Shown here piece after piece: positions 6,616 through 64,000 of a DNA stretch of 64,000 nt. The DNA is from Micromonospora luteifusca (GTDB taxonomy: Bacteria; Actinomycetota; Actinomycetes; Mycobacteriales; Micromonosporaceae). Positions within the stretch are counted from its first letter, which is position 1, and each line of letters opens with the position of its first letter. The notes beneath the pieces are model-generated. The model saw only the letters and a list, made by a program, of their open reading frames with translations. It ran no database searches and was not told the origin of the DNA. Both the position numbers and the translations under genes were made by a program. Location: NCBI RefSeq assembly GCF_016907275.1, contig NZ_JAFBBP010000001.1:4082001-4146000 (forward strand). Direction: 5' to 3'.

Positions 6616-7102
6616 TGAGGATCATGTCCAGGGCCATTCCGACGAGCTGGTCGATGATCAGCTCGCTGATCATCTTGAAGATCGGTATCTCGAGCAGGGA
6701 GGCGCCCGCCGTGGCCACCGCGGTGGCGATCGCCTGGGCGACCTGGACGGCGAGTAGTGCCAACTGCACGATCACGCTGATTTTCAGCGCCAACACGATT
6801 CCGGCGCAGACGATCATCGCCACGCCCAGGATCCGTGCGCCCTGCCCGGCATTCTCCAGGTTGACGGCCGGTGACCTCTGGGCGGTCCAGGCGGCTTGAA
6901 AGGCGTCGATTGCCTCACCCGCGTTGCTCTGCCACAGGCTGGTGGCGGCGTTCGACGAGGTGGTGACCGGGACGGCGACCTCGTCGGCCAACCGCAACCA
7001 GGTCTGGCCGAACTCGAACATCCGCTCCTCGTCGGCCTCCGGCCAGGAAAAACCCAGCCAGCCGAGCACTGACACGAGCTCTTCGGGAAGTTGCAGACCC
7101 AT
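6608..7102 (-). CDS. CpnT N-terminal-like (WXG100-like) secretion-domain protein
   Basis: A 164-residue protein beginning MGLQLPEELVSVLGWLGFSWP, the pattern of the CpnT-like N-terminal domain found at the head of actinobacterial type VII-exported toxins. A helical WXG100-like half (with LWQSNAGEAI as the turn) is followed by two hydrophobic segments (about residues 88-135). In related proteins this domain leads directly into a toxin; here it ends with a TAG and the deaminase starts in another frame 8 nt earlier. ATG 7102 lies 3 nt after the stop of the WXG100-like gene. Likely role: recognition and/or delivery partner for the deaminase. Confidence 0.78.
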   Translation of the reverse strand: MGLQLPEELVSVLGWLGFSWPEADEERMFEFGQTWLRLADEVAVPVTTSSNAATSLWQSNAGEAIDAFQAAWTAQRSPAVNLENAGQGARILGVAMIVCAGIVLALKISVIVQLALLAVQVAQAIATAVATAGASLLEIPIFKMISELIIDQLVGMALDMILNG

Positions 7103-9846: not shown

Positions 9847-12168
<2,322 letters not shown>

Positions 12169-21125: not shown

Positions 21126-22603
21126 TGGCGGGACCGACCGTGCCGAGAGCCACCGAGCCGGAACCGGCTGCCGGCTGGGCGCCCACCCGGGCGCTCGGCC
21201 GGGCGGTGCTGCTCGCCGGCCTGCTGCTGGTGGCAGGGGTGCTGCTGGGCCGGGTCGACCTGATCGTGCTGGCCGCTCCGTTCGCGCTGGGCACCGCGTA
21301 CGCGCTGCGCCGACGGCCCACGGCGCTGCCGCAGGTGTGGATCACCTCGGGTGACGACGGGCCGTTGGTCGAGGGCGGCGAGGTGACCGCCGCGGTGAGC
21401 GTCGGCAACCCGGACGTGGTCGACTACGACCTGGTGGTGCTGCGTTCCCGCGTGTCGCCGTGGCTGCGCGTCGACCGGGCCGGCTTCGCCCAGGACGAGT
21501 CCGTCGACGACGGGCCGACCGTCACTGCGACGCCAACCGCCACTCCGACGCCAACCGTCACTGCGACGCCAACCGCCACTGCGACGCCGGCCAGCGGCAC
21601 GGGCCGCTCCATCGCCGACCGGCCGTTCGTGACGTCGGTGCCCACCGGTGCGGCGGTGGACCTGGAACTGGCCGGCCGTGCCCTGCGCTGGGGCCGGCAC
21701 CCGGTCGGCCCGGCCGGTGCCCGGGTCGCCACGGCGGGTGGCCTGCTGGTTTCCCGGGCGGTGATCAGCGAGCCGGTCCGGGTGCGGGTGTACCCGCGTA
21801 CCGAGCCGTTCGAGGCGGTGGAGGCCATGCCCCGCGCCGCCGGCCTGGTCGGGGCACACCACTCCCGTCGCCCCGGTGAGGGCGGCGAGCTGGCCGGCGT
21901 ACGGATCTTCGGCCCCGGGGACCGGCTGCGCCGCATCGATTGGCGGGTGTCGTTGCGCGCCCGGCAACTGCACGTGGCCGCCACTCTCTCCGACCGCGAC
22001 GCGGAGGTGGTGGTGCTGCTCGACGTGCTCGCCGAGGCTGGCCGCTCCGGCGGGGTGAGCGGGGCCGCCTCGGTGCTGGACACCACCGTCCGGGCCACCG
22101 CCGCGATCGCCGAGCACTACCTGCACCGCGGCGACCGGGTGTCCCTGCTGGAGTACGGGCCGGCAGCTCGCCGGCTGCGGCCGGCCGCCGGGCGTCGGCA
22201 GTATCTGACGGTCCTGGAGTGGCTTCTCGACGTCCGCGTCCAGTCGTCCTCGCACGAGCCGTACGACCAGGTGTTCGGCCCGCAGTTGCTGTCCTCGGAC
22301 GCGCTGGTGGTGGTGCTCACCCCGCTGCTGGACGAACGGTCGGCACAGATGCTCGCCCGGCTGGCCCGTGCCGGGCGGTTCGTGGTGGCTGTCGACACGT
22401 TGCCGACCGAGCTGGCGCCGCCGAGGGACCAGACCTGGGCCGAGGTGGCGTACCGGCTGTGGCGCTTGGATCGCGAAGTCATGATTGGGCAGCTCCGCGA
22501 GCACGGCGTACCGGTGGTGCGCTGGGCCGGCGCCGGCAGTCTGGACCAGGTGTTGCGGGATGTGGCCCGGTTGGCGACGGCACCACGGGTCGGTGGCCGG
22601 TGA
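21125..22603 (+). CDS. DUF58 (vWA-like) membrane protein
   Basis: A 492-residue protein. Two transmembrane segments lie at about residues 25-60, then an extracellular-type beta domain interrupted by a Thr/Ala/Pro repeat (TVTATPTATPTP), then the DUF58 core GPGDRLRRIDWRVSLRARQLHV and a von Willebrand A-like region with VVVLLDVLAE as the MIDAS-type strand. DUF58 proteins are presumed MoxR partners, acting in cell-envelope assembly or stress; that role is inferred. ATG 21125 shares a base with the moxR stop. Confidence 0.88.
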   Translation: MAGPTVPRATEPEPAAGWAPTRALGRAVLLAGLLLVAGVLLGRVDLIVLAAPFALGTAYALRRRPTALPQVWITSGDDGPLVEGGEVTAAVSVGNPDVVDYDLVVLRSRVSPWLRVDRAGFAQDESVDDGPTVTATPTATPTPTVTATPTATATPASGTGRSIADRPFVTSVPTGAAVDLELAGRALRWGRHPVGPAGARVATAGGLLVSRAVISEPVRVRVYPRTEPFEAVEAMPRAAGLVGAHHSRRPGEGGELAGVRIFGPGDRLRRIDWRVSLRARQLHVAATLSDRDAEVVVLLDVLAEAGRSGGVSGAASVLDTTVRATAAIAEHYLHRGDRVSLLEYGPAARRLRPAAGRRQYLTVLEWLLDVRVQSSSHEPYDQVFGPQLLSSDALVVVLTPLLDERSAQMLARLARAGRFVVAVDTLPTELAPPRDQTWAEVAYRLWRLDREVMIGQLREHGVPVVRWAGAGSLDQVLRDVARLATAPRVGGR

Positions 22604-22713
22604 GCGCGAGGAGTGAGCTTGCGAGCCCCGCAGTCGCGAACGAGAGGGCGGGCGCGGTGAGCGCGAGGAGTGAGCTTGCGAGCCCCGCAGTCGCGAACGA
22701 GAGGGCGGGCGCG
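22600..22713. repeat. Two perfect 57-bp tandem repeats
   Basis: Copies at 22600-22656 and 22657-22713 are identical over 57 bp (19 codons). A degenerate third piece follows to about 22757. The repeat begins GTGAGCGCGAGGAGTGAGC. Confidence 0.95.
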
Positions 22714-22761
22714 GTGAGAGCCGCGAACGAAGGGCCCGTGAACGAGGGTGGGCGCAGATGA
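22600..22761 (+). CDS. 53-codon repeat-encoded ORF bridging DUF58 and the next gene
   Basis: GTG 22600 overlaps the DUF58 stop (GTGA), and its own stop overlaps the next ATG (ATGA). The product is two identical 19-residue units (SARSELASPAVANERAGAV) plus a degenerate third. It is made of a perfect 57-bp tandem repeat, so it may be a repetitive element captured in the operon rather than a functional protein. Coupling at both ends means ribosomes could travel through it. Confidence 0.4.
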   Translation: MSARSELASPAVANERAGAVSARSELASPAVANERAGAVRAANEGPVNEGGRR

Positions 22762-55826: not shown

Positions 55827-57254
55827 TCAGGGGCGGCCCATACCCCGGTACTCCCAGCCGGCCTGGGTCCAGAGCGCCGAGTCGAGGCAGTTGCGGCCGT
55901 CGACCACCTTGCGGCCGTTGACCAACTCGCCCAGGGCGACCGGGTCGGCGTTGCGGAAGTCGGCCCACTCGGTGAGGACGCAGACCAGGTCCGCGCCGGT
56001 GACCGCCTCGTTGATGCCGGCCTCGTAGGTCAGCTCGGGGACCGCGCGGCGGGCGTTCTCGGTGCCCTGCGGGTCGTACACGTGCACGTCGGCGCCGGCC
56101 TTGTGCAGCAGTGCGGCGACGGCGAGCGCCGGGGCGTCGCGGACGTCGTCGGTGTTGGGTTTGAAGGTGGCGCCGAGCACGGCGATCCGGGTGCCGGAGA
56201 AGTCCGGGCCGGCCGGACCGGAGCGGCGGCCGAGCAGGTCTGCTGCGAGCTGGAGCACCCGGGTACGACGGCGCAGGTTGATCAGGTCGACCTCGTGCAG
56301 GAAGCGCAACGCCTCGCCGGCGCCCAGCTCCTGGGCGCGGGCCTGGAAGGCCCGGATGTCCTTGGGTAGGCAGGCGCCGCCGAAGCCGAGGCCGGCCTGC
56401 AGGAACCGGTTGCCGATGCGCGGGTCGTACCCGATCGCGCGGGCAAGTTGGGTGACGTCGCCGCCGGATGCCTCGCAGACCTCGGCCATCGCGTTGATGA
56501 AGGAGATCTTGGTGGCGAGGAAGGCGTTCGCGGCGACCTTGACCAGCTCGGCGGTGGCGAAGTCGGTGACGACCAGGGGCACCTCGCGGTCCTCGGTGGC
56601 GGCCAGGTCGAACACGCCCTTGTGCGCGGCGTAGAGCATGCCGTTGGCCCACTCGCTCTTCACGCCGACCACGATCCGGTTGGGCCGCAGGACGTCGTCG
56701 ACGGCGAAGCCCTCCTGGAGGAACTCGGGGCTCCACGCCACCTCGACGCCCAGGTCGTGGGGGGTGTGCTTGCCGACCAGTTGCTCCACCCACTCGGCGG
56801 TGCCGACCGGCACGGTGGACTTGCCGACGATGAGCGCCTTGCGGGTCAGGTGCTGCGCGAGGCTGGTGACCGACGCCTCGACGTACGACAGGTCGGCGCC
56901 CATCCCGTCGGCCCGCTGGGGGGTGCCGACGCAGATGAAGTGCACGTCGCCGAAGTCGGCGGTCTCGGCGATGTCGGTGCTGAACCGCAGACGGCCGGCG
57001 GCGAGGTTGCGCCGGAGCAGCTCGTCCAGGCCGGGCTCGTGGATCGGCACCTGACCGGCGTTCAGCATTGCGATCTTGTCTGCGTCGACGTCGAAACCGA
57101 GCACTTCGTAGCCCAGTTCGGCGTAGCAGATGGCGTACGTCGCACCGAGGTAGCCGGTCCCCAGGAACGTCACCCGCGGCCGCGGCGCGCCCGAGGGCGG
57201 TGTCACCGCGGCGATGGCGGGGGTCGGCTGGATGGTGGGGTAGGGGATCGTCAC
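55827..57254 (-). CDS. UDP-glucose/GDP-mannose dehydrogenase family protein
   Basis: A 475-residue NAD-dependent sugar-nucleotide dehydrogenase, most like UDP-glucose 6-dehydrogenase, which makes UDP-glucuronate for envelope or capsule glycans. The NAD fold is VTFLGTGYLGATYA, the catalytic Cys 295 is in GFGGACLPKD, and the C-terminal substrate domain has GATFKPNTDDVRDAPA. GTG 57254 has GGAGAAG six bases upstream; in-frame ATG 57356 would add 34 basic residues. Confidence 0.9.
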   Translation of the reverse strand: MTIPYPTIQPTPAIAAVTPPSGAPRPRVTFLGTGYLGATYAICYAELGYEVLGFDVDADKIAMLNAGQVPIHEPGLDELLRRNLAAGRLRFSTDIAETADFGDVHFICVGTPQRADGMGADLSYVEASVTSLAQHLTRKALIVGKSTVPVGTAEWVEQLVGKHTPHDLGVEVAWSPEFLQEGFAVDDVLRPNRIVVGVKSEWANGMLYAAHKGVFDLAATEDREVPLVVTDFATAELVKVAANAFLATKISFINAMAEVCEASGGDVTQLARAIGYDPRIGNRFLQAGLGFGGACLPKDIRAFQARAQELGAGEALRFLHEVDLINLRRRTRVLQLAADLLGRRSGPAGPDFSGTRIAVLGATFKPNTDDVRDAPALAVAALLHKAGADVHVYDPQGTENARRAVPELTYEAGINEAVTGADLVCVLTEWADFRNADPVALGELVNGRKVVDGRNCLDSALWTQAGWEYRGMGRP

Positions 57255-57502
57255 GCCTGTCTTCTCCGCTCGCACTGGCGGCGCGTCGTCGCGTCGCATT
57301 CTGCTGCGGCGCCTGGGCGGGGCACCGGTGGGTGGCTCACTGTTGTCCACCATCATTGTCCAGCGGCGTGGGTGACCCTCATGCCCATACCTACGCGCCG
57401 GTAACATCTCCTGAACTGCAGTCGTTAGTCTTCAGTCTGCGCCGTCGGCGGTCAGGAGTCGCCACAGACTGCGCATGATAGCGGTGAAGGGGAGGGGCCA
57501 AC

Positions 57503-58666
57503 ATGGCCGCAGGCGAGTTGTTCGACGTCTACCGGTTGCCGGAGGAGCACGAGGCGATCCGGGAGGCGGTGCGTGAGGTCTGCGCGGCGAAGGTCGCCCC
57601 GAACGCGGCCGAGGCCGACGAGACCGGAGAGTTCCCCAAGGCGTCCTACGACGCGCTGCGGGCGGCCGACTTCCACGCCCCGCACATCCCCGAGGAGTAC
57701 GGCGGCGCGGGCGCGGACGCGCTGGCCACCGCCATCGTGATCGAGGAGGTCGCCCGTGCCTGCGCGTCCTCCTCGCTGATCCCCGCGGTGAACAAACTTG
57801 GCACGATGCCGCTGCTGTTGTCCGGTTCCGAGGAGCTCAAGCGCCGTTACCTGACGCCGGTCGCGGCCGGTGACGCCATGTTCTCGTACTGCCTGTCCGA
57901 GCCGGAGGCGGGCAGCGACGCCGCCTCGATGACGACCCGGGCGGTGCGTGACGGGGATCACTGGGTGCTCAACGGGGTGAAGCGCTGGATCACCAACGCC
58001 GGCGTGTCCGAGTTCTACACCGTCTTCGCCGTCACCGATCCGGCTGCCCGCTCCCGGGGCATCTCGGCGTTCGTGGTTGAGAAGTCCGATTCCGGCGTGA
58101 GCTTCGGCGCGCCGGAGAAGAAGCTCGGCATCAAGGGCTCGCCGACCCGCGAGGTCTACCTCGACAACGTGCGGATCCCCGCCGACCGGATCATCGGCGC
58201 GGAGGGCACCGGCTTCGCCACCGCGATGAAGACCCTGGACCACACCCGGGTCACCATCGCCGCGCAGGCCGTCGGGATCGCGCAGGGCGCGCTCGACTAC
58301 GCCAAGGGGTACGTGGCGGAGCGCCGCCAGTTCGGCAAGGCGGTCGCCGAGTTCCAGGGCGTCCAGTTCATGCTCGCCGACATGGGCATGAAGCTGGAGG
58401 CGGCCCGGCAGCTCACGTACGCCGCGGCTGGCAAGTCCGAGCGTGGCGACGCGGATCTCACCTACTTCGGTGCGGCGGCCAAGTGCTTCGCCTCCGACGC
58501 CGCCATGGAGATCACCACCGACGCCGTGCAGTTGCTCGGCGGTTACGGCTACACGCGGGACTACCCGGTCGAGCGGATGATGCGGGACGCCAAGATCACC
58601 CAGATCTACGAAGGAACGAACCAGGTGCAGCGGATCGTCATGGCGCGGGAGCTCCTGAAGGGCTGA
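57503..58666 (+). CDS. Acyl-CoA dehydrogenase
   Basis: A 387-residue FAD enzyme of fatty-acid or branched-chain acyl-CoA oxidation. [16 protein letters not shown] and the [12 protein letters not shown] motif are standard, and the catalytic base is Glu 370 in [14 protein letters not shown] 57503 follows GGGGAGGGG. Its last codons lie in a 49-bp sequence repeated exactly at 63712, which suggests that the 3' end is an integration or rearrangement site; the C-terminus here reads MARELLKG, against MARQLLSGIV at the second copy. Confidence 0.95.
58596..58644. repeat. 49-bp direct repeat, left copy (candidate att site)
   Basis: Identical over 49 of 49 bases to 63712-63760. It begins TCACCCAGATCTACGAAGG and lies inside the 3' end of the acyl-CoA dehydrogenase gene. 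Confidence 0.9.
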
Positions 58667-58899
58667 GAGGCTACGTTTGCGCAGGTCAAAGCGCTGATGT
58701 TGATGGGTCTCTATCCGACGGAGTGGTTGGTGCGGCGCCGAGATGTCAGTAATCTACGGATGCGCTCCGGCGATGCCCGGGTCGGAGCGTTTCCGCAGGT
58801 AGAGACCTAGCGGCCGGGTCGCCGGTTGTCGTTCGACCGCACTGCGGCCGAATGCATCCTGGGCAAATCCTGGGGTTGGGATCCCCTGTGGACATCCGC
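58667..58899. other. Non-coding spacer inside the repeat-bounded region
   Basis: No convincing gene. It contains AAATCCTGGGG (58865-58875), which recurs at 63650-63660 just inside the other end of the region. Confidence 0.5.
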
Positions 58900-60648
58900 T
58901 CATTGATTGGGGAGGGAGCCGACCCATCGGTATCGTCGTTTGGGGCTTCGTGCTGCTCCGACGGCGATGACGGTGTCAGCCCCGACCAGCGCGCGTAGGT
59001 GGTTGAGGACGGCGGTGCGTGACAGTCCGGTGAGTTCGACGAGCTCTCCTGCTGTCGCTTCTCCCCGGTTCCTGAGCGCCTGGCTGACGTCAGGCAGGAG
59101 GCTGGTGAAGAGGTCAGGCTCCTTTGCCCGACCGGCTGCTGTGGGATCGAGTACGTACTGTGCGTAGCGCCGCCCGCCCTCCTTTACGGCCAGTCCTTGG
59201 TCAACGAGATCCCTCAGGACCTGACCGGCAGCGATGCGGTCTACGCCCCATTGCCGCAGCATCTCGTTCGTGAGGTAGTTCTCGCGCAGCATCGCGAGGG
59301 CGATCTCGTGCGCGGGTGTGGGCAGGTGCACGTGCAGCCCGGCGATCCAGCGGCGAACTTCGGGATTGAGGAGTTCGGAGCGGGCCATGGTGACCACGAA
59401 GCTGGCGATGGAACTCCTGAAGTTCGGCCGTGGCAGGCCCCGGCGTCGCGCTACAGCGAGCATCGCGGGGATGCCTGAAGACCTGTTTTCGGCGACGAGT
59501 TCGTTCGACGACGGGAGGTAAGTGTCTGCGAGGAGGCTCGCCAAGACGGCATTGCGCGACGACGAGATGCCTTCCTCGCCCAGTTCGTCGACGACGACGC
59601 CCCCGTAGAGGCCACCTGGGCTGCGGACGACAAGGCGGTCGGGGAACAGCTCAACCTGCACCTGGGTGCCTCTCGTCACAGGGCTGTAGTCGCGGTGCAG
59701 CAGGGCGTTGACGACCGCCTCGCGGACGGCTTCGAGCGGGTACTCGACCTCATCCATGCGTCCACCGTGATCGCTGATGACTGCGCGGATTGAGAGGCTG
59801 CGGCGGAGTACCGAAAGGGTGGTCTCGACCATTTCAGGGATGGAGCCCCGGACTGTCTGGTTGTCGAGGAACCTTACGCCGGAGGCCGGATCCGGGCCGT
59901 GCACGACCACCGAGACCATCAGTTGAGGGAAGTGCTGTTGCGGAAATTGCCCGTAGGCCAGAAGCCCGGCGAGCGTCAACGACGATTCGGTTGCGGGCCC
60001 CGCCGTTATGCCGAGCCGGTAGAGGACGGTGGCGTCGTCGGACTGGGCGAGCTTTGGGTATCCGGTCCGCATCCTCCGCAGCGTGCGGCGCACGGCCTCG
60101 TCGTCCAGGTCGTCCGCAGAGGTCCCGTCAACGGGTTCGCGGTCGTACATCGGTTGAGTTCGGGCGGCCGTGACCATCGCGATCTCTGCCTGGGTCATGT
60201 GGCGGTCGCCGTCGCCCCCACGTAGATATGAGCCCCCGGAGATGCCTTGCGCGGTGACGTAGACCGGACGCTGGTCCGCCGGGGTGGGCGGCACCTCCGC
60301 GACCACCAGTCGGTGCCCGTCGACCTCGACGATCTCGGTGCTGATGCGCAGTGCGGGTGTGAGGTCGTCTCGTGACATCTGCACCAGAGCGTTCCGGAGT
60401 CCAGCGGGATCGGTCAGCTCGACGAGGGTGAACCCACTCTGCTCGTCGACGCCGAGCAGGACCGTCCCGCCTTCGGTGTTCGCGAAGGCGGAGAGCGTCT
60501 CGCGAACGGACTTCGGCAGCCCTTCGGCGGCCCGCTTCGCTTCGACACCCGAAGGCTCACCGCCTATCCGACGCAGAGTAGCGAGCATCTCGATAACGTC
60601 GTCAGCAATCACAGCAGCTATGACATCACCGAACTTCGCACTTAGCAA
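58900..60648 (-). CDS. AlbA_2/Schlafen-like ATP-binding protein
   Basis: A 582-residue protein. The N-terminal AlbA_2 domain (GVEAKRAAEGLPKSVRETLSAFANTEGGTVLLGVDE) is followed by a GHKL-type ATPase-like C-terminal module (AVREAVVNALLHRDYS, LVVRSPGGLYGG) and a winged-helix end (GEATAGELVELTGLSRTAVLNHLRALV). Such proteins act as regulators or appear in defence and mobile loci; the function here is not known. Start uncertain: TTG 60648 opens the frame, but GTG 60612 or ATG 60588 fit the family better. Codon use is less GC-biased near the 5' end. Confidence 0.82.
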   Translation of the reverse strand: MLSAKFGDVIAAVIADDVIEMLATLRRIGGEPSGVEAKRAAEGLPKSVRETLSAFANTEGGTVLLGVDEQSGFTLVELTDPAGLRNALVQMSRDDLTPALRISTEIVEVDGHRLVVAEVPPTPADQRPVYVTAQGISGGSYLRGGDGDRHMTQAEIAMVTAARTQPMYDREPVDGTSADDLDDEAVRRTLRRMRTGYPKLAQSDDATVLYRLGITAGPATESSLTLAGLLAYGQFPQQHFPQLMVSVVVHGPDPASGVRFLDNQTVRGSIPEMVETTLSVLRRSLSIRAVISDHGGRMDEVEYPLEAVREAVVNALLHRDYSPVTRGTQVQVELFPDRLVVRSPGGLYGGVVVDELGEEGISSSRNAVLASLLADTYLPSSNELVAENRSSGIPAMLAVARRRGLPRPNFRSSIASFVVTMARSELLNPEVRRWIAGLHVHLPTPAHEIALAMLRENYLTNEMLRQWGVDRIAAGQVLRDLVDQGLAVKEGGRRYAQYVLDPTAAGRAKEPDLFTSLLPDVSQALRNRGEATAGELVELTGLSRTAVLNHLRALVGADTVIAVGAARSPKRRYRWVGSLPNQ

Positions 60649-61282
60649 GCGGTGCGTGAAGTAGGTGTTAAGCTTGGCAAGGTTCAGGCCAGGGTCACGG
60701 AGTGATCGACGCCTGACTCCAGGACCCCGGGGTGGGGATATGCCCAGATTGCTGTGAGGTCGCCGAGTCGCGTGCCTGCTCCCGGGCGGGGCCGGTGCGG
60801 GGGCGTTGGATCAGCGTGCCACGCCGCCGACACGCACCTGAACACCGGTGCCGATGATCCTCGACTGCGAGCTAAGGCACTCCGCGGCCAGGTTTTTGCC
60901 TAAATGCACCCGAGGGTCTGCCGCCACCGCCGCACGCTCAGAGGATTCTCTTCGCGTGCGGCGATGGCGCAGCAGACTCCGGTTTCAATCTCGGTCAGAG
61001 CTTCGCTGAGTCGCCGCCACACAGCATGACCAACGCAAGGTCAACAATCTCAATCACGGAGGGTTCCGATGATTTCGTCAGATCACAGATTTCTGAGACT
61101 GAGCTTGATCTTTAACCTGCGCAGCGTGGTCGGGGATTCGTCGATTTCTACTTGTTGGACTTCAGGTCCGTGGTGTCGCTGCTGGTGACGGTATGGACAT
61201 CGTGGCGGCGGGTGGGTTGGCGGTTGGGTCGTCCGGGTCTTTGCCACGGCCGCGCAGGTGCGGTACCGCAGCCGAGGTCGGG
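60649..61282. other. 634-bp gene-poor, AT-richer spacer
   Basis: No well-supported gene. It holds the hairpin at 60928-60963, an AT-rich patch at about 61030-61160, and a weak 39-codon ORF (ATG 61069-61188, GGAGGG upstream). Composition differs from the core genome, suggesting acquired DNA. Confidence 0.5.
60928..60963. terminator. Strong two-part hairpin
   Basis: CGCCGCACGC (60928-60937) pairs with GCGTGCGGCG (60954-60963). A 2x2 internal loop then leads to AGAG-GATT-CTCT with a 4-nt loop. It lies in non-coding DNA. Could be a terminator, a small structured RNA or a recombination hairpin. Confidence 0.5.
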
Positions 61283-62413
61283 TCAGCCGGTGCGTCCGCC
61301 GGGCATCACCACGATGGCGTTCTGCGGGAGGGTGGCCACCTCACGCAGATTAAGGCCGTCCATCGACAGCACGATCGTCCGAGGGCCGTCCGAGCTCAGA
61401 TTGACCTGCCGGCCGAGAAAGATCCGCTCGCCGTCCGAGCCGATGACGTACCAGCGGCCGGAGTCCATCGGTACCTGCTGCTCGGAGTGGATCCGACCGC
61501 TCAGGTCGACATCGAGCACCCGAGTAGGACGATCACCGTCCATCGTAGTGACGACGACCCGTAGCCGGCTGTCGTCGCGGCTCGGATACAACATGCCGGA
61601 CCGGTCGATCGTTTCGTCGGGTCCGATCCGGTCCCTGACCTCGACCGTGACCGGGGGCGATGTGCCCGTCAGGCCGGCGGTGACGGTCAGCGTGGTCAGG
61701 CGCGTCTGATCCCGCCGGCGTGGGATAGACAGCGGTTCGCCTCCCCGCCTCACCCCGATCACCTCGGCTGGTGAACCCGGGATCCGTCGCTGCGTGCCGG
61801 AGCTCAGACCGACGAGGACGAACTCTCCGCCCTCTGTCGACGCGGATTCGTCGAGGAGGAGCCAGCCCGAGTCCGGCGACCAGGCCCGTCCGGTGACCCG
61901 ACCAGCCGTGGACTTCGGCTCGATCGACAGGACCTGCCCGCCTTTCAGGTCGCGTACCAGGTACCGGCTTGCGTTGGGATACCCCAACCACCGTCCGTCG
62001 GGGGACAGGGCCACGCCGATCGGGCTGGCCACCGGAAGTGTGAACTGCTGGCCGTCCGGGAGCAGGAGCCGTGGTGCGCAACCGGCCGCGCACGTGGCGT
62101 AGACGAGAGTGGCGTGGCCGACGCCCGTCGACGGCAGTGCTGGCGCCGGGGCGAGCGAATCGACCGCCAGCGGTGCGAGGCCGGCCGGCCTGCCGGAGGC
62201 TGTCGACCCCGGCGTGGTCGGTCCGACCTCCCCGTACGGTTGCATGACCACCCCCGCCGCCGTCACGACCGCAAGGACCCCGGCGCAGGCAGACACCCCG
62301 ACCGTGAGGTTCATCCGGCGGCGCCGAGCGACGGCGATCGCCCGGTCGGGATCGACGTAGTTGCGGCCGTGCTCGGCCAGATCTTGGTAAACACGACGGA
62401 ACGCGTCAGACAT
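61283..62413 (-). CDS. TolB-like membrane protein coupled to sigma factor
   Basis: A 376-residue protein. A short cytoplasmic head (DAFRRVYQDLAEHGRNYVDPDRAIAVARRRR) is followed by a transmembrane segment (about residues 36-57) and an extracytoplasmic beta-propeller-like region (GVALSPDGRWLGYPN, RAWSPDSGWLLLDES). It starts (ATG 62413) inside the sigma gene's last codons, so the two are one operon. By position it may act as the sensor or anti-sigma partner, but no zinc-anti-sigma motif is seen. Confidence 0.72.
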   Translation of the reverse strand: MSDAFRRVYQDLAEHGRNYVDPDRAIAVARRRRMNLTVGVSACAGVLAVVTAAGVVMQPYGEVGPTTPGSTASGRPAGLAPLAVDSLAPAPALPSTGVGHATLVYATCAAGCAPRLLLPDGQQFTLPVASPIGVALSPDGRWLGYPNASRYLVRDLKGGQVLSIEPKSTAGRVTGRAWSPDSGWLLLDESASTEGGEFVLVGLSSGTQRRIPGSPAEVIGVRRGGEPLSIPRRRDQTRLTTLTVTAGLTGTSPPVTVEVRDRIGPDETIDRSGMLYPSRDDSRLRVVVTTMDGDRPTRVLDVDLSGRIHSEQQVPMDSGRWYVIGSDGERIFLGRQVNLSSDGPRTIVLSMDGLNLREVATLPQNAIVVMPGGRTG

Positions 62414-62948
62414 GGTCAACCTCCGACGGCTGGACGCCTTCGAACGCGGTGGGCGGAGTTGAGGGAATGTGCCGTCGCAGGCGGACCAGGGCGTCGTGGA
62501 CGTGCCGCTTTACAGTGCCGACGCTGCATCCGAGTTGACGGGCGGTCTCCACTTCCGATAGATCCTCGTAAAAGCGCAGGTATAGCGCCGCCCGCTGGCG
62601 CGCGGGCAGGGTAGCGAGTGCGCATGCCACGGTGAGCCGCGTAGCGGTGTCGCCGGCGAGGTCGTCGCCGGACGCCGCGTCGGGAACCGCCTCGGAGATC
62701 ACCTCGGTAGGTCGCCGCCGGCGGCGCCAGGAGCGAAGCTGATTGAGCATCACCGTGCGGACGTAGGCTTCCGGGTGGCCGCCGGTCTGCACTCGACGCC
62801 AGTGCCGGGCCGTCTTCGCCAGCGACTCCTGAAGCAGGTCCTGTGCCTCCTGGTGATCGCCGACGAGCAGGTAGGCGGTCCGCGAGAGGGTCGGTCCGCG
62901 CGCGAGGGCGAACTCGCGGAACCCGGCGTACCTGTCCGCACCGCTCAT
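62406..62948 (-). CDS. SigE-family ECF RNA polymerase sigma factor
   Basis: A 180-residue ECF sigma of the actinobacterial SigE family. Region 2 is FREFALARGPTLSRTAYLLVGDHQEAQDLLQESLAK; region 4 is LPARQRAALYLRFYEDLSEVETARQLGCSVGTVKRHVHDALVRLRR with its helix-turn-helix. ATG 62948 follows AAGGAGG. It is translationally coupled to the TolB-like gene. Its targets are unknown. Confidence 0.92.
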   Translation of the reverse strand: MSGADRYAGFREFALARGPTLSRTAYLLVGDHQEAQDLLQESLAKTARHWRRVQTGGHPEAYVRTVMLNQLRSWRRRRRPTEVISEAVPDAASGDDLAGDTATRLTVACALATLPARQRAALYLRFYEDLSEVETARQLGCSVGTVKRHVHDALVRLRRHIPSTPPTAFEGVQPSEVDHV

Positions 62949-63040
62949 CCTGCCTCCTTCTGCGTCCTACCCGTATTAACGCCGTCCGCCCGTCCCGAGG
63001 TTGAGTCGGAGGACTGCCGGAATGATCCGGCACCCTCGGC

Positions 63041-63063
63041 GCCGGTCCGAAGTTCGGACCGGC
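63041..63063. other. 23-bp palindrome
   Basis: GCCGGTCCGAA-g-TTCGGACCGGC: 11-bp perfect arms about one central base. It sits between the sigma gene start (-) and the end of the upstream frameshifted gene. Possible operator or terminator. Confidence 0.4.
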
Positions 63064-63091
63064 CATCGCGGACGGGCGCGCGACTCACCGG

Positions 63092-63482
63092 TCACCCCGC
63101 CTGCAACTGCGGCTGCGCCCGGTCGATGCCCGTCACAATGAGATCCCGGTATGCGATGATCTCTGTCTCGTGTTCGACCACGTAGGTGGCGCACAGCTCG
63201 CCGAAGACCGAACGGCTGATCTCGTCGAGGCGCTCGTTCTCGGCGCAACGGGCGTGTGCGGTCGCGATCGCGACCTCCCACTCGCGGGCTGCAGTGGGCC
63301 CCAGCGGCAGTGAGCCCTCGCCGCCGAGCTTTCAGGCGGACCTGGACCGGGGCTTCGTCGCCGTCCAGCGGCGGCTCGCCAGCGAGGCGCTGGGCAAGTA
63401 CGTGCTGACCTTCGGCGGTGGTTATTTCTTCGTGCCTGCCGGCCAAACGGGGGTCGGTCTTCCAAGGTAACGGGACCGTCAG
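63092..63482 (-). pseudogene. Frameshifted hypothetical gene
   Basis: Two reading frames that read like one protein: an upstream part (VPLPWKTDPRLAGRHEEITT...) and a downstream part (AAREWEVAIATAHARCAENE...RDLIVTGIDRAQPQLQAG, stop at 63092) joined by a frame change near 63328. No good start codon is seen for the first part, and it contains an in-frame TTA (63468-63470). The intact product would be about 130 residues; family not recognised. Confidence 0.55.
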
Positions 63483-63711
63483 GTGCTCTTGACGCTGCGT
63501 AAAGGCTACGACTTCTGAGTACGGCGGAGGTCTGGGCTTGAACCTCGACCTGGTGCTACCTGGCATCGCATATGGCTGGTCGTCGCGACGACGCGAGCTA
63601 ACCGAAGGTGAGCTGATTGGCTGCACGAGGCAGCGGGCGGGCTCTGGGGAAATCCTGGGGAAAGCGCCGCAGGGGCGAGTTTTCCCAGCTCAGTGCCCTC
63701 GTCTCCGTTGT

Positions 63712-63760
63712 TCACCCAGATCTACGAAGGAACGAACCAGGTGCAGCGGATCGTCATGGC
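63712..63760. repeat. 49-bp direct repeat, right copy (candidate att site)
   Basis: Perfect copy of 58596-58644. Upstream sequence is unrelated; downstream the coding similarity continues for about eight codons and then ends. Confidence 0.9.
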
Positions 63761-63787
63761 AAGACAGCTGCTCAGCGGCATTGTTTA
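63712..63787 (+). pseudogene. Orphan 3' end of an acyl-CoA dehydrogenase gene
   Basis: Encodes [24 protein letters not shown] and a TAG stop, the last 24 residues of an acyl-CoA dehydrogenase, with no gene body upstream. Either the original 3' end of the gene at 57503 displaced by insertion, or the remnant of a deleted paralogue. Confidence 0.75.
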
Positions 63788-63839
63788 GGCCCCCACCGAG
63801 CCGGGCCGGTAATCGATGATCAGAAGGTCGCGGACCTGC

Positions 63840-64000
63840 GCGGGCGAGCTGGCCGTGAAGGCGGAGGTCGCGGCGACCCTCGGCATCGGGATCGGTGACC
63901 GGGTGGATCTCGACGGTCGTAGGCGGTAGGTGGTGGGCCTGGTGGAGAACCCGAGTGACCTGCACGACGCGTTCGCCCTGGTCGCTCCGGACCATCCGGA
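63840..64000 (+). pseudogene. Decayed FtsX/MacB-like ABC permease fragment (runs off window)
   Basis: The frame reads AGELAVKAEVAATLGIGIGDRVDL, then a TAG (63927-63929), then VVGLVENPSDLHDAFALVAPDHP. This matches the periplasmic-core segment of FtsX-like permeases (GLVENP...LVAP), broken by an in-frame stop and lacking its 5' end. Confidence 0.6.

What the first reader, a model, noticed from the sequence alone, without database searches (positions are those of the whole stretch)
58596..63787. Perfect 49-bp direct repeats bracket a 5.1-kb region at the acyl-CoA dehydrogenase 3' end
58596-58644 and 63712-63760 are identical. The left copy completes an intact gene ending MARELLKG; the right copy is an orphan tail ending MARQLLSGIV. 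This is what integration into a gene's 3' end leaves (attL/attR with the gene end restored). The cargo is unlike its surroundings, yet no integrase is seen. AAATCCTGGGG also recurs near both inner edges.
Basis: partly seen in the sequence, partly recalled or inferred. Interest (0 to 1): 0.75.

Follow-up and report, generated by a model that had tools for sequence, protein, structure and literature searches.

The report
Mobile island in a metabolic gene's tail
The repeated 49 bases mark the two ends of a small, probably mobile DNA island that slots into the tail of a fat-burning gene and rebuilds that tail; related islands, some with their own integrase and anti-virus genes, use the same slot in other soil actinobacteria.

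Summary
In detail: 58596-58644 and 63712-63760 are identical, 5116 bp apart. The reading is supported with amendments. The relative G062 has one acd (acyl-CoA dehydrogenase) gene whose end resembles the RIGHT copy, followed by the same downstream block at 98.8%. No tandem acd pair was seen in the fetched loci. The site recurs: 12 orphan acd 3' ends were read in 10 of 67 Actinoplanes-type genomes. At those limits 0 of 59 distinct intact acd ends have either. Integrase genes adjoin orphan ends in G227, G201 and G211; G211's arm matches the window's. Close homologues of the window's AlbA_2/HATPase gene occur in 10 of 354 family genomes, each within 4.4 kb downstream of an acd end. The window's 5.1 kb has no detectable integrase, so it is a decayed or trans-mobilised member. 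The kind is known; this target was not found in the papers searched.

The parts
57503..58666 (+). acyl-CoA dehydrogenase gene (acd), the target; its last ~22 codons are inferred to be element-supplied
   Evidence: Pfam Acyl-CoA_dh N, M and C-terminal domains; match at E 1e-200 or better in 158 of 160 genus genomes
58596..58644 (+). left 49-bp copy (attL core)
58598..58602 (+). inferred crossover segment ACCCA (left copy; right copy 63714-63718), between inverted arms; consensus by eye at orphan sites TCGTAGATC-ACCCA-GATCTACGA
   Evidence: 13 orphan and 14 left or intact sites printed side by side; 12 of 13 listed orphan matches start at query 59-62, one (G252) at 54; inference
58645..58666 (+). 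replacement gene tail ending in MARELLKG*, unlike the tails of 10 of 14 close relatives looked at
58675..58689 (+). P' proximal motif GTTTGCGCAGGTCAA just after the stop codon
   Evidence: a like motif (up to 3 mismatches) lies downstream of 10 of 59 distinct intact acd ends: nine at element-bearing acd genes and G062
58859..58874 (+). left arm-type tandem repeat CTGGGCAAATCCTGGG
   Evidence: strict pattern found only at element ends among the 90 loci then held (1.1 Mb, some overlapping)
58900..60648 (-). cargo: SLFN_AlbA_2 + HATPase_c_4 protein with a C-terminal winged-helix-like region, 582 aa
   Evidence: strong DNA match in G012 and G018, both after acd
61283..62419 (-). cargo: ORF without a Pfam match, overlapping the ECF sigma gene (possible anti-sigma partner; inference)
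62406..62948 (-). cargo: ECF sigma factor
   Evidence: Pfam Sigma70_r2, Sigma70_r4_2
63186..63470 (+). ORF holding a fragment of a Dyp-type peroxidase C terminus; apparently decayed region near the right end
   Evidence: PF20628, residues 48-87
63644..63659 (+). right arm-type tandem repeat CTGGGGAAATCCTGGG, 73 nt upstream of the CAGATCTACGA anchor
   Evidence: same place (-73/-74) in 9 of 13 orphan sites at 0-1 mismatch
63677..63693 (+). P motif GAGTTTTCCCAGCTCAG, 40 nt upstream of the anchor
   Evidence: 10 of 13 orphan sites at exactly -40; 0 of 59 distinct intact acd ends
63712..63760 (+). right 49-bp copy (attR core)
63761..63788 (+). displaced older gene tail, MARQLLSGIV*
   Evidence: 63712-63790 is 89.9% identical to the single acd end of G062; 63712-63797 is 86% to G004

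Best explanation
The 5.1 kb between the repeats is a small integrase-less integrated element at the 3' end of acd. A tyrosine integrase binds inverted core arms around ACCCA at the left edge of the 49-bp repeat and tandem arm sites (CTGGsnArATCCTGG) on both sides, and recombines there. The element thereby supplies the last ~65 bp of acd (left copy, MARELLKG) and the older end is pushed to the far side (right copy, MARQLLSGIV). Related elements in Actinoplanes-type genomes use the same site, and three have an integrase gene next to the orphan end. The window's element either lost its integrase or was moved in trans. Shown: both copies, the unoccupied relative, conserved arms and spacing, integrases at sister sites. 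Inferred: crossover position, enzyme, loss versus trans mobilisation. Not shown: excision or movement.
For: Perfect 49-bp pair. G062: one acd, end like the right copy (89.9% over 79 bp), then the block 64324-67920 at 98.8%, no AlbA segment. The AlbA unit is 95% identical in G012 (1788 bp) and G018 (1000 bp; a further 437 bp at 89.7%), against 86-90% for their acd regions; these are the 3 strong matches in 160 genus genomes, all after acd. Family-wide, 10 of 10 close AlbA genes (E 1e-150 or better, 354 genomes) lie within 4.4 kb downstream of an acd end, two directly beside an orphan end. In 67 Actinoplanes-type genomes 13 orphan copies in 11 genomes were listed, 12 starting at query position 59-62 and one at 54 of 130. 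P motif at -40 in 10 of 13 and arm at -73/-74 in 9 of 13 orphan sites; 0 of 59 distinct intact ends have the motif (up to 3 mismatches) or the arm (up to 1) upstream. Integrases: G227, ORF reaching to about 245 nt from an orphan end that lies 26 kb from the intact acd; G201, 92% identical, interrupted; G211, split in two frames, about 360 nt from an orphan end whose arm CTGGGTAAATCCTGG matches the window's.
Against: No integrase or remnant in the segment. G012 and G018 carry the AlbA unit without a right-hand copy. Crossover at the left edge predicts that the rest of the repeat has two sources, yet all 49 bp match, including GAAGGAACG, which none of the other loci listed has in full: this needs an attP from a very close relative or later gene conversion. 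G002 has the same 22 nt after the core (MARELLKG) without this element, and G106 and G159 have LLQG and LLKG ends without an orphan copy, so such tails can exist without the present insertion. The intact second-type integrase in G233 lies between its acd and an orphan end but about 32 kb from the latter, with no core within the 1 kb beside it. 3 of 13 orphan sites lack the window-type motif and arm. At 3 mismatches the arm pattern also turns up upstream of 10 of 59 intact ends.
Confidence: 0.87

Rival explanations
1. Homologous exchange between strains at a variable locus: foreign cargo arrived with flanking acd sequence and left a short acd duplicate, without a site-specific recombinase.
For: The interval from acd to the next conserved gene is highly variable (0.07 to 50 kb, 166 kb in G139; my subtraction of positions) and holds what look by eye like NRPS/PKS clusters in G106 and G159 without an orphan acd end. 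G012 and G018 carry AlbA without a right copy.
Against: Orphan ends in another genus start at nearly one position and most carry the same upstream motif and arm at fixed distances, absent from 59 intact ends at the same limits; integrases sit beside three of them. Homologous exchange predicts none of this.
Confidence: 0.08
2. The right copy is the remnant of a deleted second acd gene (tandem paralogue).
For: The right tail is a plausible gene end; some genus genomes have a second acd elsewhere, e.g. G012, G008, G006.
Against: No tandem acd pair in any fetched locus. The sequence upstream of the right copy is not acd but an arm region, 72% alike over 132 bp (core included) to that of A. solisilvae.
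Confidence: 0.02
3. A version of the best explanation, not exclusive of it: the ends belong to the site-specific system, but the present 5.1 kb is a composite of several old insertions and deletions rather than one unit that ever moved as such.
For: AlbA homology to G012 ends at 60701; a peroxidase fragment lies near the right end; a stretch at 61097-61238 recurs elsewhere in many genomes; tandem accretion is seen in A. solisilvae and G224.
Against: Both ends carry matching arms, so it is still bounded as one unit.
Confidence: 0.4

Closest known systems
Tyrosine-integrase genomic islands in gene 3' ends (tDNA islands of Islander, abstract start seen in a listing, PMC4383910; islands at dusA and trmE, abstract start seen in a listing, PMC8409611)
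   Same: Direct repeats at the ends, target gene regenerated by island DNA, displaced fragment at the far end, integrase beside att in relatives
   Different: The target is an acyl-CoA dehydrogenase gene with ~65 bp (about 22 codons) replaced; no integrase in the window copy
Actinomycete integrative and conjugative elements (AICEs; passages of PMC3218068 read)
   Same: Actinobacterial, tyrosine integrase, 3'-end sites
   Different: That survey reports tyrosine-integrase AICEs mostly in tRNA gene 3' ends; no replication or transfer domain was recognised in the five segment ORFs scanned here
Cis-mobilisable elements (CIMEs, att-flanked decay products of ICEs; recalled)
   Same: att-flanked, integrase-less, in tandem accretion next to related elements
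   Different: Mobilisation not shown; larger relatives here are not shown to be conjugative
Defence islands with type I restriction (recalled)
   Same: At the same acd site G227's element holds HsdR, HsdM and a GmrSD-AlbA_2 protein, and G012 holds HsdR, HsdM and an AIPR/AbiU-like protein
   Different: The window copy keeps only the AlbA_2/HATPase gene of this sort

Membership tests
Tyrosine-integrase genomic island at a gene 3' end | Direct repeats bounding the segment, target gene kept whole | tested here: met
Tyrosine-integrase genomic island at a gene 3' end | Relative with unoccupied site | tested here: met
   G062: single end like the right copy, same downstream block, no AlbA segment; it has ~350 bp of its own in between
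Tyrosine-integrase genomic island at a gene 3' end | Integrase gene inside this segment | tested here: not met
   none by Pfam scan, tblastn or profile search; present in sister elements
Tyrosine-integrase genomic island at a gene 3' end | Arm-type and inverted core-type sites | tested here: met
   by sequence only; the window's own right core arm is imperfect; binding not tested
Tyrosine-integrase genomic island at a gene 3' end | Excision or integration activity | not testable with these tools
   needs PCR or an assay
AICE | Replication initiator and FtsK/TraB-like transfer gene | tested here: not met
   no such domain in the five segment ORFs scanned; not tested for the whole G227 element
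Prophage | Phage structural genes; attP in phage records | tested here: not met
   no phage domain in the five segment ORFs; core region without match in phages and a degenerate core pattern without match in viral contigs
CIME | att-flanked, no integrase, derived from an ICE | tested here: inconclusive
   first two met; ICE ancestry not shown
Integron gene cassette | attC folded site and IntI-type integrase | not tested
   sites here look like double-arm att sites in a coding gene; only the style (small units, tandem arrays) is alike

The most novel reading that the evidence does not exclude
The acd 3' end is the docking port of a cassette-like system: short integrase-less units (1.7 kb in G224, 3.1 kb in G233, 5.1 kb here), each carrying the last ~65 bp of acd plus conserved double arms, stack in tandem and are shuffled between genomes by an integrase supplied in trans from larger islands, so that the end of a housekeeping gene works as an integration platform for defence and regulatory genes.
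Probability: 0.3. Interest if true: 0.75.

Novelty: new member of a known kind. Interest (0 to 1): 0.55.

Why it matters
It points to a recurrent, protein-coding integration site in the genera around Actinoplanes and the window's own genus, with candidate integrases (A. regularis protein P0092; A. octamycinicus protein P0001) and arm sequences. That would help delimit defence islands in these actinobacteria and could give new site-specific integration vectors. The tandem, integrase-less units make it testable whether such cassettes are mobilised in trans.

Tried and rejected
Tandem paralogue remnant: no tandem acd in the fetched relatives. Phage or plasmid attP: no match in phages or viral contigs; the plasmid matches were 80-90% or lower, 47 of 103 in Sinorhizobium, and look like diverged acd genes. 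The G227-type integrase gave no match in plasmids or phages at E 1e-20 and no confirmed relative in viral contigs. Intervals of 10-12.5 kb after acd in G011, G067, G169, G135, G084, G124, G126 and G157 looked like elements but share one resident cluster. Family searches of 20 chosen genus genomes for PF00589 (list truncated) and PF00239 listed no hit inside the acd-to-next-gene interval. Rfam on 56000-64000: nothing above a gathering score. The exact core variant gave no match in genome contigs, where the window's own genome may be left out. Structure prediction was not used: the cargo's fold was not the question.

Literature: searches brought up no report of a tyrosine integrase using an acd 3' end; most of their hits I saw only in listings, and papers outside the held library were not searched. 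Seen as passages: PMC7890619 (a phiC31 pseudo-attB within a putative Streptomyces rimosus acyl-CoA dehydrogenase gene, disrupting it: another enzyme and outcome), PMC3218068, PMC7466150 (acyl-CoA dehydrogenases as island cargo). CIMEs, integron features and the general design of tyrosine-recombinase att sites are recalled.

Full report
OBSERVATION. The two 49-bp copies at 58596-58644 and 63712-63760 are identical, far beyond 60 resampled windows (20 bp at most). The left one completes acd (acyl-CoA dehydrogenase, 57503-58666); the right one is an orphan ending MARQLLSGIV*. AAATCCTGGGG occurs only at 58865 and 63650 in the window. Five ORFs of the segment were scanned: an AlbA_2/HATPase protein, an ECF sigma factor, a peroxidase fragment and two without a Pfam match; no integrase. 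Searches for remnants of both integrase types found none in the segment (best tblastn E 0.035, none at 0.01).

UNOCCUPIED SITE. The window lies in G000, an unnamed 7.16-Mb genome. acd matches in 158 of 160 genus genomes at E 1e-200 or better. Of 14 close relatives whose acd end I read, 10 end in MARQLL plus a short tail rich in A, G, D, N, S and V (G029, G028, G034, G024, G030, G004, G017, G070, G062, G183); G002 (MARELLKG), G106 (LLQG), G159 (LLKG) and G114 (LLGSRQA) do not. G062, 97% alike in acd, has one end whose last 79 bp match the window's right copy at 89.9%, and after some 350 bp of its own it shares the block 64324-67920 at 98.8%. So the right copy keeps the older end, and the left tail came with the insert or with an earlier one. 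G002 has the same 22 nt after the core without this element, which the scheme does not explain.

RELATED UNITS. The AlbA unit (58914-60701) is 94.9% identical in G012; in G018 1000 bp are 95.0% and 437 bp 89.7% identical, with a gap between. Both follow the acd stop codon, without a right-hand copy. They and G000 are the strong matches among 160 genus genomes; 48 others had only short weak ones. Of 354 family genomes 10 have a close AlbA gene. Seven follow an intact acd by 4.4 kb or less (G012, G018, G222, G207, G244, G210, G241); G201's follows an orphan end near a contig start; G238's follows an orphan end with the intact acd 6.7 kb upstream; the window's follows the restored gene. Homologues in Cellulomonas and two MAG contigs show no acd within the stretch held; the Cellulomonas one sits among what look by eye like type I restriction genes.

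THE SITE IS RECURRENT. A 130-bp acd-end query in 67 Actinoplanes-type genomes listed 13 orphan copies in 11 genomes, 12 starting at query position 59-62 and one (G252) at 54; the list was cut off. Twelve, in 10 genomes, were read in DNA; the G207 copy on contig 32 is degenerate and was not aligned. In G224 two orphans 1710 bp apart bound a unit with an AbiEii gene; DNA 88-96% identical over 1.1 kb lies beside acd ends in G252, G211 and G236.

ARMS. With the window's, 13 orphan sites were compared. Ten have GAGTTTTCsCAGyTCAG (0-3 mismatches) starting exactly 40 nt upstream of CAGATCTACGA; nine have the tandem arm CTGGsnArATCCTGG (0-1 mismatch) at -73 or -74. G201 and G217 have neither; G227 has no motif and only a 3-mismatch arm at -52. 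Among 59 distinct intact acd ends 0 have the upstream motif, and the arm lies upstream of 0, 0, 2 and 10 at up to 0, 1, 2 and 3 mismatches (an earlier count with duplicates gave 0 and 12 of 84). A related motif lies just downstream of 10 of 59: nine element-bearing acd genes and G062. In the 90 loci then held (1.1 Mb, some overlapping), the strict arm occurs only at element ends of G000, A. solisilvae and P. durhamensis. The pattern arm-plus-motif without mismatch is in 2 of 354 family genomes, G000 and G238. Around the left edge of the core the orphan sites read, by eye, TCGTAGATC-ACCCA-GATCTACGA, an inverted repeat as expected of a tyrosine-recombinase core; the window's right copy fits it imperfectly (inference).

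INTEGRASES. G201 has an interrupted tyrosine integrase (PF00589) and a small ORF without a Pfam match, excisionase-like by eye, beside its orphan end. A homologue, 92% identical, lies in G227 beside an orphan end 26 kb from the intact acd; these are 2 of 354 genomes at E 1e-40. G227's element carries HsdR, HsdM and a GmrSD-AlbA_2 protein; TGTGTGAC pairs lie near both its ends and near the G201 orphan end, and nowhere else in the loci then held. G211 has a second type (SAM-like domain in one piece, just under Pfam's cut-off, PF00589 in the other), split in two frames, next to an orphan end with window-type arms. Full-length homologues exist in Actinoplanes, Micromonospora, Catellatospora and other genera. 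The A. regularis one equals G233's, which lies between its acd and an orphan end but 32 kb from the latter; G211 and G233 are 2 of 67 genomes with it.

EXPLANATION AND DOUBTS. The simplest account is site-specific insertion at ACCCA, with the element supplying the last ~65 bp of acd. Open points: identity of all 49 bp on both sides, uncommon bases included; missing right copies in G012 and G018; the G002 tail; the missing integrase. The locus is variable in general, so homologous exchange also acts there.

NOVELTY. Islands of this kind are well known; this target and its arms I did not find in the searches made.

Noticed in passing
L031:9632-11462 (G000, just beyond the window): Block of WXG100/ESX-like and YbaB-like genes (named by eye) right of the orphan end, shared with G062 at 98.8%; G062 has TTTTCCCAGCTCAG after its acd stop, so this block may itself have come by an older insertion.
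   Followed up: partly
61097-61238: A ~140-bp stretch recurs at about 70-83% identity, in some genomes at two listed places, in many genus genomes; no Rfam match above a cut-off; nature unknown.
   Followed up: partly
acd-to-next-gene interval in relatives: General hotspot: what look by eye like NRPS/PKS clusters in G106, G159 and G127 and another cluster in G170; a type I restriction island in G012.
   Followed up: partly
L163:17670-19380 (G224): 1.7-kb unit with an AbiEii nucleotidyltransferase gene between two orphan acd ends; similar DNA beside acd ends in three other genomes.
   Followed up: partly
L090 near 6746-6775 and 10037-10076 (G062): Sequence like window-side 67891-67930 (40 bp) appears at two places about 3.3 kb apart in G062, perhaps another insertion.
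   Followed up: no
9853-9956 and 22598-22718: Tandem repeats: a 25-bp-period array of about four copies, and an overlapping 64-bp exact repeat with a 57-bp offset, the longest exact direct repeat in the window.
   Followed up: no
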